Part shown: in pieces, positions 24,965 through 35,414 of the stretch
How the letters are laid out: each line of letters starts with the position of its first letter
Position numbering within the stretch: the stretch's first letter is position 1
NCBI GenBank assembly: GCA_002688355.1
Contig: NZCT01000023.1
Span: forward strand, 1 to 40,249
Length of the DNA: 40,249 nt
Direction: 5' to 3'
Source: an archaeon
GTDB taxonomy: Archaea; Nanobdellota; Nanobdellia; SCGC-AAA011-G17; GW2011-AR20
Made by a program: the position numbers and the translations under genes
Notes under the pieces: generated by a model
The model's input: the letters and a program-made list of their open reading frames with translations, nothing else
Database searches by the model: none
What the model was told of the DNA's origin: nothing

Positions 24965-25876
24965 GAGGTAATGAAAATTATAGAAAAAAGAGATAGATTT
25001 GGAAAATTTGTAAAAGGGATAGTACCTTGGAATAAAGGAAAGAAAGAACCATATTCTGCAGAAACATTAAAAAGAATGAGTGGTGCCAAGAAAGGTAAAT
25101 GTCCAAATACAGGTTATGAATTTAAAAAAGGACATATTCCATGGATTAAAGGAAAAAAAGGAGTAACAAAAGCTAATATAACTTCATTTAAAAAAGGACA
25201 AATATTTTCCAAGGCAATAATAGAAAAAAGACTAAAAAATCTTAGGAAAAAAGTTCTAATAAAACCAAACTTAAAAATAAGTCAAGATTTAGCTTATATT
25301 ATTGGTATATTGCTTGGAGATGGGTCAGTTTTTAAATGCAGTACAACATATAATATTGTTCTTGACATAACAGATAAAAATATAGCACTAAAATTCTTTA
25401 ATTCATTGAAAAGTATAGGATTAAATCCAAGAATTAATGAAAGGATGCCTACAAACGGCATCGGAAAGCTAAAAAAATATATTGTAATTGCACATTCGAC
25501 TAATTTTGGTTTGTGGTTTAAAAATTTATCAATTAAAAAATTAAAGAAATCGTTAAATAAAAAATATTTACTTAAATCATTCATATGTGGATTCTATGAA
25601 GCAGAAGGTACAATGTATACGACCAAACAAAAATATAAAAACAAAGTATATAAAAAATTTCACATAGGAATGTCAAATACAGATATAAAACTTATCCAAT
25701 TTGTTAAGGGTTTAACTGATAAATTAGATTTTAAATTTAATCTAAATGGTCCTTATAAAAATCATGGATTAGGATACCCCAATGCAAAATCAATATACAG
25801 AATTGAAACAGCTATTAAAGATGATGTTTATAGATTCATAGAATTAATAAAGCCAGTTGGTAAGAATATTTGGAGG
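24965..25876 (+). mobile_element. Possible homing-endonuclease insertion on the gdh leader
   Basis: The endonuclease ORF is bracketed by the 8-mer GAGGTAAT at 24965-24972 and again at 25873-25880. The left copy acts as its own ribosome-binding region and the right copy as that of the dehydrogenase. Removing one repeat and everything between rebuilds a compact promoter, Shine-Dalgarno and ATG for the dehydrogenase. This fits insertion but also chance reuse of a Shine-Dalgarno-like 8-mer. Confidence 0.35.
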
Positions 25877-25879
25877 TAA
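24971..25879 (+). CDS. Free-standing LAGLIDADG homing endonuclease with NUMOD-like N-terminus
   Basis: A 302-residue protein with two LAGLIDADG helices, AYIIGILLGDG (108-118) and FICGFYEAEG (204-213), so one chain can form the monomeric endonuclease with both acidic residues present. The first 80 residues have three short basic repeats with W-x-K-G-K-K or F-K-K-G-Q/H cores, resembling NUMOD3 DNA-binding modules usually seen with GIY-YIG nucleases. It is not inside an intein or an obvious intron. Its last codons (TGG AGG TAA) contain the Shine-Dalgarno of the next gene, whose ATG is 5 bp beyond the stop. Confidence 0.85.
   Translation: MKIIEKRDRFGKFVKGIVPWNKGKKEPYSAETLKRMSGAKKGKCPNTGYEFKKGHIPWIKGKKGVTKANITSFKKGQIFSKAIIEKRLKNLRKKVLIKPNLKISQDLAYIIGILLGDGSVFKCSTTYNIVLDITDKNIALKFFNSLKSIGLNPRINERMPTNGIGKLKKYIVIAHSTNFGLWFKNLSIKKLKKSLNKKYLLKSFICGFYEAEGTMYTTKQKYKNKVYKKFHIGMSNTDIKLIQFVKGLTDKLDFKFNLNGPYKNHGLGYPNAKSIYRIETAIKDDVYRFIELIKPVGKNIWR
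25872..25876 (+). promoter_or_regulatory. Shine-Dalgarno site deciding the dehydrogenase start
   Basis: GGAGG lies 8 nt before ATG 25885, inside the last codons of the endonuclease. It favours 25885 over the in-frame TTG at 25870. The stretch 25871-25901 is a near tandem duplication (TGGAGGTAATTTTTA, then TGGAAGTAATTTTTGA). Confidence 0.6.
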
Positions 25880-31518: not shown

Positions 31519-31995
31519 TTATCCAAAATAATTATCTGGAACTATCTTTTCTTCTTTTCTCCAAGATTCTTGCATTATATCTACAACATTTTTCATCTCT
31601 TTTTTGTATTTTAATAATTCATTATAAACATTATTAATATATTTAGCATCTTTTTCACTATTAGGTATAATATCTAATCTTAAAGATTCTCTTTCAAATA
31701 TCATTAATTGTCTATATGATTCTAATATTTTTTTCTTAATATCATCATCAAAATATTTAGATTCATGCATGTTAATTATATTAGCTTGAACAGGAAACAA
31801 TAAACCTTCAATAATTCTACAAAAGAAAATAATCTTATCATTCATCTTTCTTCTAATATCCCTTAATAAAAATTCTTTTTTATAATCACTTTCATTTCTA
31901 GAAATTTCAAACTCATCATTTAATTTTTCAAAATTAGGTAGTTTAGCTTTTAATTGTGAATATTCTTCTTTTAATTTAAATTTATCTTTTTCCAT
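31519..31995 (-). CDS. Hypothetical helical protein
   Basis: Not recognised. A mostly helical 158-residue protein from the ATG at 31995 (an upstream ATG at 32016 is possible). An N-terminal coiled-coil-like segment (KDKFKLKEEYSQLKAKL) is followed by LLRDIRRKMNDKIIFFCRIIE, then a long helical C-terminal half with charged residues. There is no membrane span. It lies just upstream of the adenylate kinase on the same strand and may share its transcript. Confidence 0.55.
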   Translation of the reverse strand: MEKDKFKLKEEYSQLKAKLPNFEKLNDEFEISRNESDYKKEFLLRDIRRKMNDKIIFFCRIIEGLLFPVQANIINMHESKYFDDDIKKKILESYRQLMIFERESLRLDIIPNSEKDAKYINNVYNELLKYKKEMKNVVDIMQESWRKEEKIVPDNYFG

Positions 31996-32082
31996 TTTTA
32001 CTTTAAATCTATACAAAATATATAAATCTTCTTAAATTTAAATAACAATAATATTTTTAAACACATAACCTAAACTATAATT

Positions 32083-33108
32083 ATGAATTTTAAAAAATTC
32101 TCTCTAATTATCTTCATTTCACTACTTTTGCCGCTTTCTGCAGATGCATTAAAAGTAAATAATATAGAATGTAATAATGATGGTTCCTTAGAATTTAAGA
32201 TAGAAGGAGAGTTTGATGATAAAATATACACAAAAGATATAGGTGTTATCGTTGAAGACCATGAAGATAATGGTTCATGGGACAGTATTAGTATACAAAA
32301 ATCATACAGTGATTCTCAAAGATATGCAACATTCGCCATACCAGAAGCATCTTTAAATGAAAATAAAATTTATAAAGTTTCTTTAAATTACACAGAGGAT
32401 GGTCAAGATAAGAAAAAGGAATTCAACGCAGAATGTCCAGGTTTATTGTTTAGTTGTAATTTACTAAATATAGATATCACCAAATGTTCAACACAAGATA
32501 GAAAATTTACAGCTGAGTTCAGCGCCAAAGGATTAAAACAATCAAAGTTATCTGGAGGTTTTAATGTAGATGTAAGTAAAGTTCTAGATTTTTTTATAAA
32601 CACAGACGAACCTTTTAAATCCAGAAAGAACATTTCATATAAATCTGGACCCCTACCAACTGAAGTGGATTTTAAACATTTAGGTAATGATAATTATATT
32701 CTTAGTTTCGATTTTGGTTCAGATAATTATGTTAAAAACATAAGAGTTGATTATGATCCTCAAAGTAAATATCCTGCAACCCTTGCAAATTCTTGTAAAG
32801 AAAAAGATTACCCAAATATTAACCTATCAGATTACACAACTTGTTTTATTTCCCAAGGAGAAACTACAACAACCTTAAACGAAAATAATGTAACTGAAGA
32901 AGAAATAGTGGAAACTACAACTACCATCATAACTACCACTACAACTATTGAAAAGATACAGAATAATCCCATTACAGAAAATGTAGTAGATGAACAACTA
33001 AAATACAATGGTATTATTTTAGGTTTTGTTATTGTTGTAATTCTTTTATTGATTTCTATTATAATAAATTTATATTTTATTAATAAAAAATTAAGAGAAA
33101 AACTCTAA
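32083..33108 (+). CDS. Secreted, C-terminally anchored surface protein
   Basis: A 341-residue exported protein. Residues 1-23 form a signal peptide (IIFISLLLPLSADA). Beta-rich extracellular domains follow, with cysteines at CNNDG, CPGLLFSC, KCSTQ, SCKEK and TTCF. A threonine-rich linker (ETTTTIITTTTTIE) looks like an O-glycosylated stalk. The C-terminus is a membrane span (GIILGFVIVVILLLISIIINLYF) with a short basic tail. This is the layout of archaeal S-layer-associated proteins. No domain family is recognised. The stop codon directly abuts the tRNA-Thr 3' end. Confidence 0.8.
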   Translation: MNFKKFSLIIFISLLLPLSADALKVNNIECNNDGSLEFKIEGEFDDKIYTKDIGVIVEDHEDNGSWDSISIQKSYSDSQRYATFAIPEASLNENKIYKVSLNYTEDGQDKKKEFNAECPGLLFSCNLLNIDITKCSTQDRKFTAEFSAKGLKQSKLSGGFNVDVSKVLDFFINTDEPFKSRKNISYKSGPLPTEVDFKHLGNDNYILSFDFGSDNYVKNIRVDYDPQSKYPATLANSCKEKDYPNINLSDYTTCFISQGETTTTLNENNVTEEEIVETTTTIITTTTTIEKIQNNPITENVVDEQLKYNGIILGFVIVVILLLISIIINLYFINKKLREKL

Positions 33109-33191
33109 AGCCTTGGCTGAGAATTGAACTCAAGACCTTCACATTTTTGTAAAATACCAATGTGATGCTCTACCTACTAAGCTACCAAGGC
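33109..33191 (-). tRNA. tRNA-Thr(GGT) with a 10-nt intron
   Basis: The acceptor GCCTTGG (33191-33185) pairs with CCAAGGC (33116-33110), with T73, the discriminator of archaeal tRNA-Thr. The D arm is GCTT/GAGC, the anticodon stem TCACA/TGTGA, and the T arm TTGAG/CTCAG with loop TTCAATT. The anticodon loop is 17 nt: TTGGTA, then TTTTACAAAA, then A. Removing 33154-33145, the canonical site after position 37, gives a 7-nt loop with anticodon GGT (33158-33156). The gene is 83 nt, or 73 after removal. The intron is very short for a bulge-helix-bulge substrate. Confidence 0.85.
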
Positions 33192-33206
33192 ATGTAAAAT
33201 TATGAA

Positions 33207-33367
33207 TGCGAGAGACAGGATTTGAACCTGCGTAAGCACTAAGCTACAGGATTTCTCAACATGAAAAATCTGCGCTTAAGTTTGACATAGATTTATAAAA
33301 AACCTAACCTGCCCGTTGACAGTCTGAGATTTAAAAAACCTCAAATTCCAGACTCCGGCACTCTCGC
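33207..33367 (-). tRNA. Probable tRNA-Leu interrupted twice
   Basis: The acceptor GCGAGAG (33367-33361) pairs with CTCTCGC (33214-33208), with A73 at 33207. The T arm is GCAGG/CCTGT with loop TTCAAAT and the extra arm is long (TAGCTTAGTGCTTAC), so this is a type II tRNA; TGCCGGAGTCTGG fits Leu. The D stem CCG/CGG closes only if about 28 nt (33347-33320) is removed from the D loop; AGTCTG and CAGACT pair around it. About 48 nt (33307-33260) interrupts the anticodon arm. The mature length is then about 85 nt. TTGAGAA at 33259-33253 suggests anticodon GAG, but the stem is off by one base in simple joins, so anticodon and splice sites are unsettled. Confidence 0.7.
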
Positions 33368-33405
33368 ATACAAATACTAATGAAGAATTATTTTATAAAA
33401 CTTTC

Positions 33406-33534
33406 TCACCTTTTAAATGCACTTCTAAAGCTCTTAACTATCTTATTAAACACACCAATCTGATATAATATAGCAATTAGTGGAGCTGTAAATACTAATA
33501 ATAACCCAAAAGATTCAATTGTTTCACTAACCAT
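33406..33534 (-). CDS. Membrane microprotein (42 aa), downstream copy of tandem pair
   Basis: A 42-residue protein with one membrane span (FGLLLVFTAPLIAILY) and a basic tail (KIVKSFRSAFKR). It aligns without gaps to the 41-residue protein encoded just upstream: Met1-Val2, Glu4, Phe9-Gly10, Leu13, Phe15, Pro18, Ile20, Ile22-Leu23-Tyr24 are shared, and both tails are basic. Its start overlaps the end of the upstream ORF by 8 bp. The matching proline in mid-membrane and shared length indicate a real duplicated gene. Function unknown. Confidence 0.6.
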   Translation of the reverse strand: MVSETIESFGLLLVFTAPLIAILYQIGVFNKIVKSFRSAFKR

Positions 33535-33652
33535 GTTTCTTAAATAATTTTTTGTATAATTTACTCAAATATTTTTCTTCATATAAAATAAGTATAATTG
33601 GCAATAGGAATAACAAAAACACTCCAAACACACCTAAGATTTCATTTACCAT
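33527..33652 (-). CDS. Membrane microprotein (41 aa), upstream copy of tandem pair
   Basis: A 41-residue protein with one span (VFGVFLLFLLPIILILY) followed by a lysine-rich tail (SKLYKKLFKKHG). Its ATG lies 3 bp after the dph5 stop, so it is the next gene of the dph5 transcript. It is a paralogue of the 42-residue protein downstream, with the same positions of Phe9-Gly10, Pro18 and Tyr24. The N-out, K-in topology is predicted by the positive-inside rule. Confidence 0.6.
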   Translation of the reverse strand: MVNEILGVFGVFLLFLLPIILILYEEKYLSKLYKKLFKKHG

Positions 33653-33655
33653 TTT

Positions 33656-34381
33656 TCATTTAAAGTTTAATAAATATTCTTCTTCAATAAAATGTAATTT
33701 TCCCGGAACAATTATACAGTAAGGTTCCTTCCCAAAATCAACATCTTTTATTTTATCAATTTCTCCAAATTTTATAAATCTATCTTTTCTACCTAATCGA
33801 GAACAACCAATCACTTTTTCCCCTTTATCTAAACCATTTCTTAAAAGATAATCTAATCCTTCTTTAATTGTTAAAAACTTTTTATCTTTTGGATTTAAAT
33901 CTAATAGCAATAAAGTATGCATCCCTAATCTTTTATTTTGTTTTAAAATATCGTAAGCTATCTTAACATCTTTATTTTCAAAGGGTATTGAAGCTACTTT
34001 TCCAAAATTGTACAAATTCAAACCAGTTTCACTTATACTTGTTAAAATAGAAACACCATGGATAACTTCTACTTTAACATTTAGCTCTTTAGCTTCCTGT
34101 AATAAAGAAATATGTGTAGTTGCACTTAAACAATCTCCATAAACTAACAAACCAATATTATCTTTTTTTGCTTTTTCTATTAAAGATTTAGAATTATTTT
34201 CTAATAAATCTCTATCGGCAAGTAATATTTTTTTATTAAACAGTTTTTCTAATTTTTCAACATCAGAACCAACAGAGGTATAATTATCTAAGTAAATTTC
34301 CTTGCATTCCTTTATTGCTTCTAACGCCTTTAAAGTTAAATCGTTTTCATCTAGTCCAATTCCAATTAAATATAATGTCAT
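33656..34381 (-). CDS. dph5: Diphthine synthase
   Basis: An S-adenosylmethionine-dependent methylase that trimethylates the modified histidine of elongation factor aEF2 during diphthamide synthesis. The 241-residue protein begins MTLYLIGIGL, the family's SAM-binding glycine motif; GLLVYGDCLSATTH, VIHGVSILTSISETGLNLYNFG and IPFENK are conserved. The start is at 34381, one base after the rhodanese stop; the in-frame ATG at 34411 would overlap that gene. It heads the run rhodanese-dph5-two microproteins. Confidence 0.94.
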   Translation of the reverse strand: MTLYLIGIGLDENDLTLKALEAIKECKEIYLDNYTSVGSDVEKLEKLFNKKILLADRDLLENNSKSLIEKAKKDNIGLLVYGDCLSATTHISLLQEAKELNVKVEVIHGVSILTSISETGLNLYNFGKVASIPFENKDVKIAYDILKQNKRLGMHTLLLLDLNPKDKKFLTIKEGLDYLLRNGLDKGEKVIGCSRLGRKDRFIKFGEIDKIKDVDFGKEPYCIIVPGKLHFIEEEYLLNFK

Positions 34382-34382
34382 T

Positions 34383-34670
34383 TTATAATAAACTCCACAT
34401 ACTAAACCCACCTTCTAAATTTTTGATATTTGAATACCCTCTAGATTCTAAAAATTGAGCAGCAATACCTGAACGAAAGCCACTTCTACAATAAACAACA
34501 ATTTCTTGATTCCTAGGAATATTTGCACCATTATCTCTAATTACCTCTCCTAAAGGAATATGGATAGCATTCTCAATATGTTCTTGATCATACTCATCTT
34601 TCTCTCTAACATCAAGTATGAAAACTCCATTTATCTTTTTCTTAAATTCTTGAGGTGTGATAACTTCCAT
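34383..34670 (-). CDS. Single-domain rhodanese
   Basis: A 95-residue rhodanese-type sulfurtransferase. The active-site loop CRSGFRS starts at Cys61, and FILDVREKDEYDQEHIENAIHIP is the family's opening motif. GGFSMW near the end is standard. Members carry persulfide sulfur, but the acceptor is unknown. The degenerate ThiI-like protein at 2658 has no visible rhodanese domain, and whether they are linked cannot be told. It is encoded directly ahead of dph5. Confidence 0.9.
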   Translation of the reverse strand: MEVITPQEFKKKINGVFILDVREKDEYDQEHIENAIHIPLGEVIRDNGANIPRNQEIVVYCRSGFRSGIAAQFLESRGYSNIKNLEGGFSMWSLL

Positions 34671-34697
34671 AGAAATATTAGATTAATTAGCTTTAAA

Positions 34698-35414
34698 TCA
34701 CTTTCTTATTACAAAAAAGATCTCATTTTCAATATCATAATCCTTGTATTCATAGTTTAATTCACTTAAAATTCTTCTAAACCAGCTTCTACCTTTTTTC
34801 CTTATATTCCCTCTTTTACTCAAAACATTCTTCGCAAAACTAACAATTATTAATTTACTCTTTAATTTTTTAAGAATATCCTTACTAATATTTCTTTCAT
34901 AGTATTCTAAAGATTCTAAAACTCTAAATAAGAACACAACATCAACTCTAGGCAATTTTCCTAAATCATCATAAATTAAATCAAAAATAAATCCTTTTCC
35001 TTTAATTTTATTCTTCTTCAAATATTCATTAATATTTTTGATCTCATCAACATTAACATCGCCACAATAATATTTGGAATTTTTATTTAACTTAGCATAA
35101 TCTAATGGATTCAACCCGCAACCCAAATCTAATAAACTATTAAACTTGCCAATTAAAGAAAATATTTCCTTATAAGATTCTAAACTTCTCTTATCTTTAA
35201 CATTTCTAAAAACACCATAAACAATTCTTAGCTCTCTTCTCATATCTTTAAAAAATTTAATATATTTTTTATTTCTATTTTTAAAATCTTCTTCCTTAAT
35301 TTCTAAATTGTTTTTCTTTAAATAATCTTTGACTCTAAGTAAAACAAATTTATCATCTAAATCTTTTAGTTCTTTCTTTCTCTTAATGTCTTTTGATATA
35401 TTCTTTAATAGCAT
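34698..35414 (-). CDS. FmrO-like 16S rRNA methyltransferase
   Basis: A SAM-dependent methylase. LLDLGCGLNPLDYAKL (94-109) is the diagnostic SAM motif of the FmrO/ArmA/Rmt group that modifies G1405 of bacterial 16S rRNA and gives aminoglycoside resistance. Further matches are DVVFLFRVLESLE, LIIVSFAKNVLSKRG and KKGRSWFRRIL near the C-terminus. The N-terminal 90 residues are helical, as in that family. In an archaeon this is more likely a housekeeping rRNA modification. The start overlaps the upstream membrane-protein gene by 32 bp. Confidence 0.78.
   Translation of the reverse strand: MLLKNISKDIKRKKELKDLDDKFVLLRVKDYLKKNNLEIKEEDFKNRNKKYIKFFKDMRRELRIVYGVFRNVKDKRSLESYKEIFSLIGKFNSLLDLGCGLNPLDYAKLNKNSKYYCGDVNVDEIKNINEYLKKNKIKGKGFIFDLIYDDLGKLPRVDVVFLFRVLESLEYYERNISKDILKKLKSKLIIVSFAKNVLSKRGNIRKKGRSWFRRILSELNYEYKDYDIENEIFFVIRK

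What the first reader, a model, noticed from the sequence alone, without database searches (positions are those of the whole stretch)
33406..33652. Tandem paralogous 41-42 aa membrane microproteins after dph5
Two tiny overlapping ORFs align gaplessly, sharing MV-x-E at the start, Phe9-Gly10, Phe15, Pro18 and Ile22-Leu23-Tyr24, with basic tails. Shared spacing and divergent sequence mean purifying selection on the pattern, not recent duplication. Such pairs could act as a hetero-oligomer, a small toxin-like or pore unit, or subunits of an unrecognised membrane complex.
Basis: seen in the sequence. Interest (0 to 1): 0.68.

Follow-up and report, generated by a model that had tools for sequence, protein, structure and literature searches.

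The report
Tiny paired archaeal membrane proteins
A Woesearchaeote carries two overlapping genes for 41- and 42-residue single-span membrane proteins that descend from a common ancestor, one of them conserved in a related species at the same place, so they are genuine but belong to an unnamed, very narrowly distributed family of unknown role.

Summary
ORF1 (33527-33652, minus) and ORF2 (33406-33534, minus) overlap by 8 nt, follow dph5, and are homologous: gapless 14/41 identity; region-preserving shuffles reach the score with p about 6e-6 or less. A profile made without ORF1 (ORF2 plus its relative) picks ORF1 out of the window's six frames at E=8.5e-5. ORF2 is a real gene: it has an ortholog in a co-linear 12-kb block of Ca. 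Woesearchaeota RIFCSPHIGHO2_02_FULL_32_10, with 19/35 core residues identical, pN 0.26 against pS 0.93, and the other frames broken. All three proteins share an acidic N-terminus, an FGxxLxFxxPxxxILY span and a basic amphipathic C-tail. Neither ORF was found in the other genomes sampled, at other dph5 or tRNA-Leu loci, in viral, phage or plasmid records, or in Pfam, NCBIfam or PHROGs. So this is a lineage-restricted orphan family, not a general 'dph5 microprotein' system. Best reading: a small accessory or regulatory membrane subunit, N-out/C-in, whose tail lies on the cytoplasmic face. Pore or toxin readings are not excluded but have no specific support.

The parts
33527..33652 (-). ORF1, 41 aa: acidic N-terminus, transmembrane span about residues 8-25 with Pro18, amphipathic Lys-rich tail
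   Evidence: Homologous to ORF2; predicted one long helix 2-40, pLDDT 82; found only in the window's genome
33406..33534 (-). ORF2, 42 aa: same architecture; the member of the pair with an ortholog
   Evidence: Ortholog L005:2397-2528 in a co-linear block; pN 0.26, pS 0.93; predicted helices 2-25 and 28-40, pLDDT 82
33527..33534 (-). 8-nt stop/start overlap (ATGGTTAG) joining ORF1 to ORF2, suggesting translational coupling
   Evidence: Seen in sequence; coupling is inferred
33656..34378 (-). dph5 (diphthine synthase), 3 nt upstream of ORF1; probably co-transcribed with the pair
   Evidence: TIGR00522 E=8.8e-68, 228 bits against cut-off 114; co-transcription is inferred from spacing
33206..33368 (-). 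tRNA-Leu(UAA) with a 66-nt intron, directly downstream of ORF2; boundary of the locus
   Evidence: ARAGORN; part of the same segment is found downstream of the ORF2 ortholog in G006

Best explanation
The two ORFs are real genes for single-pass membrane microproteins of one lineage-restricted family. Shown: homology of the three known members, coding constraint on ORF2, synteny, and the shared architecture. Inferred: each inserts with its acidic N-terminus outside and its Lys/Arg-rich amphipathic C-terminal helix on the cytoplasmic face; the Pro18-containing span (FGxxLxFxxPxxxILY) packs against a larger membrane protein or against itself; and the protein works as a small accessory or regulatory subunit. 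ORF1 is a diverged duplicate placed between dph5 and ORF2, translated by coupling, so in this species the original single protein may be supplemented by a second form. The link to dph5 is one of position and probably transcription, not shown to be functional.
For: ORF1-ORF2 homology. ORF2 ortholog in the same place within a co-linear 12-kb block, 53% identity over 36 aa, comparable with neighbouring membrane proteins at 44-49%. Codon-position identities 22/27/12 of 35; pN 0.26 and pS 0.93, close to Dph5 at 0.19 and 0.75. The same charge pattern and an amphipathic tail in all three, moment 0.57-0.76, shuffle p 0.006-0.03. Helical models with pLDDT 82. Known small membrane proteins of this size are usually regulators or subunits of larger complexes (established knowledge; the abstract of PMC11539335, says the same of well-studied cases).
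Against: No partner protein is identified. Dph5 is a soluble enzyme and the genes downstream of dph5 are not conserved across the order, so the neighbourhood points to no complex. Only three sequences exist, too few for coevolution. Codon usage is only weakly gene-like. No expression data.
Confidence: 0.45

Rival explanations
1. Young, possibly de novo-born membrane microproteins under selection only to be a harmless or mildly useful amphipathic membrane anchor, with no dedicated partner.
For: Found in only two species of one family-level clade; absent from G002, a one-contig genome whose dph5 and tRNA-Leu loci were both examined. De novo candidates tend to be small and rich in transmembrane segments (PMC9258230).
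Against: Third-position saturation with conserved first and second positions over a divergence where Dph5 is 67% identical argues for a specific, maintained function. Absence elsewhere may partly be a detection limit: ORF1 itself scores only 18 bits with a profile of the other two.
Confidence: 0.3
2. Membrane-active peptide: an intrinsic toxin of the type I toxin-antitoxin kind, a holin-like pore, or a secreted membrane-lytic factor aimed at a host or competitor archaeon.
For: Size, a hydrophobic span and a cationic amphipathic tail resemble small membrane toxins (general knowledge); DPANN are mostly thought to be symbionts.
Against: Tight placement 3 nt behind a housekeeping gene and stable synteny with a related species are unlike mobile toxin loci. 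No antitoxin gene or antisense RNA was identified (the Rfam scan of the locus gives only a tRNA), and no family match in PHROGs or Pfam.
Confidence: 0.12
3. ORF1 and ORF2 form an obligate hetero-oligomer.
For: Overlapping genes imply coupled output; the paralogs keep the same spacing over 41 residues.
Against: The only relative has ORF2 without ORF1. The dph5-ORF2 gap there holds no significant ORF1 remnant (best score 31, shuffle p=0.13), so an obligate pair is not ancestral or has been lost there.
Confidence: 0.1
4. Chance ORFs: AT-rich intergenic sequence with accidental open frames.
For: Spurious ORFs of this length are common in the window; codon scores are weak, and 17% and 7% of spurious ORFs score as high as ORF1 and ORF2.
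Against: A syntenic ortholog of ORF2 with a coding substitution pattern and other frames broken, plus significant homology of ORF1 to both.
Confidence: 0.03

Closest known systems
Small single-span accessory subunits of bacterial membrane complexes (CydX, KdpF, AcrZ as a class; from general knowledge)
   Same: 30-50 residues, one transmembrane helix, often at the end of an operon, missed by annotation
   Different: No sequence match to any Pfam or NCBIfam model and no neighbouring membrane complex gene
Type I toxin-antitoxin peptides (Hok/Ldr/Fst-like, as a class; from general knowledge)
   Same: Short hydrophobic span with charged tail
   Different: No antitoxin identified; operon position behind a housekeeping gene; stable synteny; no family match
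Lineage-specific hypothetical proteins of archaea (PMC9258230)
   Same: Small, membrane-predicted, lineage-restricted, no function
   Different: That study describes families widespread within major clades; this one is known from two species only, in one as a tandem pair

Membership tests
Unnamed Woesearchaeote microprotein family (ORF1, ORF2, G006 ORF) | Significant sequence homology among members | tested here: met
Unnamed Woesearchaeote microprotein family (ORF1, ORF2, G006 ORF) | FG-x2-L-x-F-x2-P-x3-ILY span followed by a basic amphipathic tail | tested here: met
   Alignment A4; moments
Unnamed Woesearchaeote microprotein family (ORF1, ORF2, G006 ORF) | Translated in the cell | not testable with these tools
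   No Ribo-seq or proteomics available
Any Pfam, NCBIfam or PHROGs family | Score above the curated or a significant threshold | tested here: not met
   Best hits E 0.02-0.13, below Pfam cut-offs (Gate 15.8 of 29.6; PEMT 13.4 of 25); NCBIfam none
Type I toxin-antitoxin system | Antisense or divergently transcribed RNA antitoxin | tested here: inconclusive
   Rfam scan of 32900-34700 finds only the tRNA; a novel RNA cannot be excluded
Type I toxin-antitoxin system | Growth arrest on over-expression | not testable with these tools
   Bench experiment
Accessory subunit of a membrane complex | Co-purification or conserved linkage with a membrane partner | tested here: inconclusive
   Linkage conserved in two species but no partner singled out; binding not testable
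dph5-associated DPANN microproteins | Recurrence at dph5 loci across DPANN relatives | tested here: not met
   Only 2 of 30 dph5 loci examined have it; profile searches of sampled class and phylum add none

The most novel reading that the evidence does not exclude
A very young membrane microprotein gene family, originated within one Woesearchaeal clade, that has already duplicated and kept both copies as a translationally coupled, diverged pair acting as an interfacial membrane module (for example in contact with a host cell) with no counterpart elsewhere.
Probability: 0.12. Interest if true: 0.55.

Novelty: new member of a known kind. Interest (0 to 1): 0.33.

Why it matters
It shows that sub-50-residue genes, below the usual annotation cut-offs, are real and maintained in reduced DPANN genomes, and gives a small, tractable case of a lineage-restricted membrane microprotein that has duplicated. 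It does not by itself open a known question about Dph5 or symbiosis.

Tried and rejected
Weak profile hits in relatives (E 1e-3 to 0.5): those I translated were inside other reading frames, interrupted by stops, or matched only about 15-25 residues, so I treated them as chance; the two best later hits are G128 (already read as chance) and G327, which lies in a 1005-aa frame. A pilin-like N-terminus in L038 (LYQQGYFSRL) resembles the motif but was selected by the profile itself. Search for ORF1 in the dph5-ORF2 gap of G006: best score 31, p=0.13, not significant. tRNA-Leu loci of the other family members, in case the gene was linked to the tRNA rather than to dph5: none. PDB sequences: no credible match. 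Viral contigs, phages, plasmids: none. A resemblance to eukaryotic Ost4 was recalled and dropped: the spacing of the FG and Y positions differs.

Full report
Observation. The window is contig 23 of a 0.96-Mb genome; its closest relative held here by Dph5 identity is G006, Candidatus Woesearchaeota archaeon RIFCSPHIGHO2_02_FULL_32_10. On the minus strand, dph5 (TIGR00522, 228 bits against a cut-off of 114) ends at 33656. ORF1 starts 3 nt later (33652-33527, 41 aa), and ORF2 starts inside the last codons of ORF1 (33534-33406, 42 aa; overlap ATGGTTAG). Downstream lie a tRNA-Leu(UAA) with a 66-nt intron and a second intron-bearing tRNA.

Is the resemblance more than chance? Anchored at their starts, the proteins align without gaps with 14/41 identities and a BLOSUM62 score of 62. 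Shuffles of ORF1 that keep N-terminus, span and tail apart average -11 (sd 14) and never reach it in 500,000; allowing offsets of up to 4, p=6e-6. Dropping the first eight residues, p=3e-6. ORF1 outscored every other 33-residue window in about 105,000 six-frame windows from the DNA at hand; the runners-up at 39-42 came from loci that the profile itself had selected. A profile made without ORF1 (ORF2 plus the relative) finds ORF1 as the only other significant match in the window's six frames, E=8.5e-5. They are paralogs.

Are they genes? ORF2 has an ortholog at L005:2397-2528: MEQISNHSSFGLLLAFAAPVLGILYQVGILSRIIKSLRNIFGK. It sits in the same place in a co-linear block running from the CobW-like gene to the ATP-grasp gene, neighbours 44-78% identical, and is itself 53% identical over 36 aa. 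Identities by codon position are 22, 27 and 12 of 35. Nei-Gojobori counts give pN 0.26 and pS 0.93 (synonymous sites saturated); Dph5 over the same pair gives 0.19 and 0.75. The other two frames are broken by stops in at least one species. This is a coding pattern. For ORF1 the evidence is its homology to both, with dN 0.73 and dS 1.98 against ORF2; codon usage is only weakly gene-like for both.

Anatomy. All three proteins have an acidic N-terminus, a span FGxxLxFxxPxxxILY and a tail rich in Lys and Arg with an amphipathic helical pattern. AlphaFold2 gives helices 2-25 and 28-40 for ORF2 and one helix 2-40 for ORF1, mean pLDDT 82 each; with three sequences these models show helicity, not an assembly. 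The positive-inside rule predicts N-out/C-in.

Distribution. ORF1 is not in the relative: the 178-nt gap between dph5 and ORF2 there holds nothing significant (best score 31, p=0.13). Neither ORF is found in the other 28 dph5 loci read, nor near tRNA-Leu-query matches in the 11 other genomes of the family, nor by profile in searches of 145, 378 and 371 related genomes, which overlap; the weak hits I translated proved to be chance. A scan of 84,980 species found only the relative. Viral contigs, phages and plasmids gave nothing, and neither did Pfam, NCBIfam, PHROGs or PDB. A caveat on all these negatives: ORF1 scores only 18 bits with the two-sequence profile, so members more diverged than ORF1 would be missed in whole genomes.

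History. ORF2 is nearer to the relative (18/33 core identities) than ORF1 is to either (11 and 13 of 33). Either the duplication predates the split and the relative lost ORF1, or ORF1 evolved faster after a later duplication; with no outgroup member this cannot be decided.

Mechanism. The best-supported class is a small accessory or regulatory membrane protein whose span packs against a partner and whose tail lies on the cytoplasmic face (0.45). The partner is unknown; dph5 is a neighbour, and the genes downstream of dph5 vary across the order, so no functional link to diphthamide is claimed. A toxin or pore has no specific support.

Verdict. It is a genuine, lineage-restricted orphan microprotein family, one of many expected in DPANN genomes (compare PMC9258230).

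Noticed in passing
33109-33191, minus strand: tRNA with an intron in the anticodon loop that ARAGORN could not type or called Phe(AAA). Read by hand, the loop TTGGTATTTTACAAAAA fits tRNA-Thr(GGU) with a 10-nt intron after position 37, and the relative has tRNA-Thr(GGU) in the same place.
   Followed up: partly
34698-35414, minus strand: A homolog of the FmrO/Rmt 16S rRNA m7G1405 methyltransferases (Pfam FmrO E=2e-9; NCBIfam Rmt 82.6 bits, below the 250 cut-off), 65% identical in the related Woesearchaeote. Probably a housekeeping archaeal member; role not tested.
   Followed up: no
24971-25879, plus strand: ORF that by eye looks like a LAGLIDADG-type homing endonuclease with NUMOD-like N-terminal repeats, lying just upstream of a Glu/Leu dehydrogenase-like gene; not searched.
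   Followed up: no
31519-32016, minus strand: A 165-aa conserved hypothetical protein without a significant Pfam or NCBIfam match; similar sequences appear near matches to the tRNA-Leu query in G002 and G012 (L068, L074), so the gene and tRNA may be linked across the family.
   Followed up: no
L005 2219-2396: The dph5-ORF2 gap in the relative holds a hydrophobic stretch followed by a stop and a basic stretch; it could be a decayed ORF1 but is not significant (p=0.13).
   Followed up: partly
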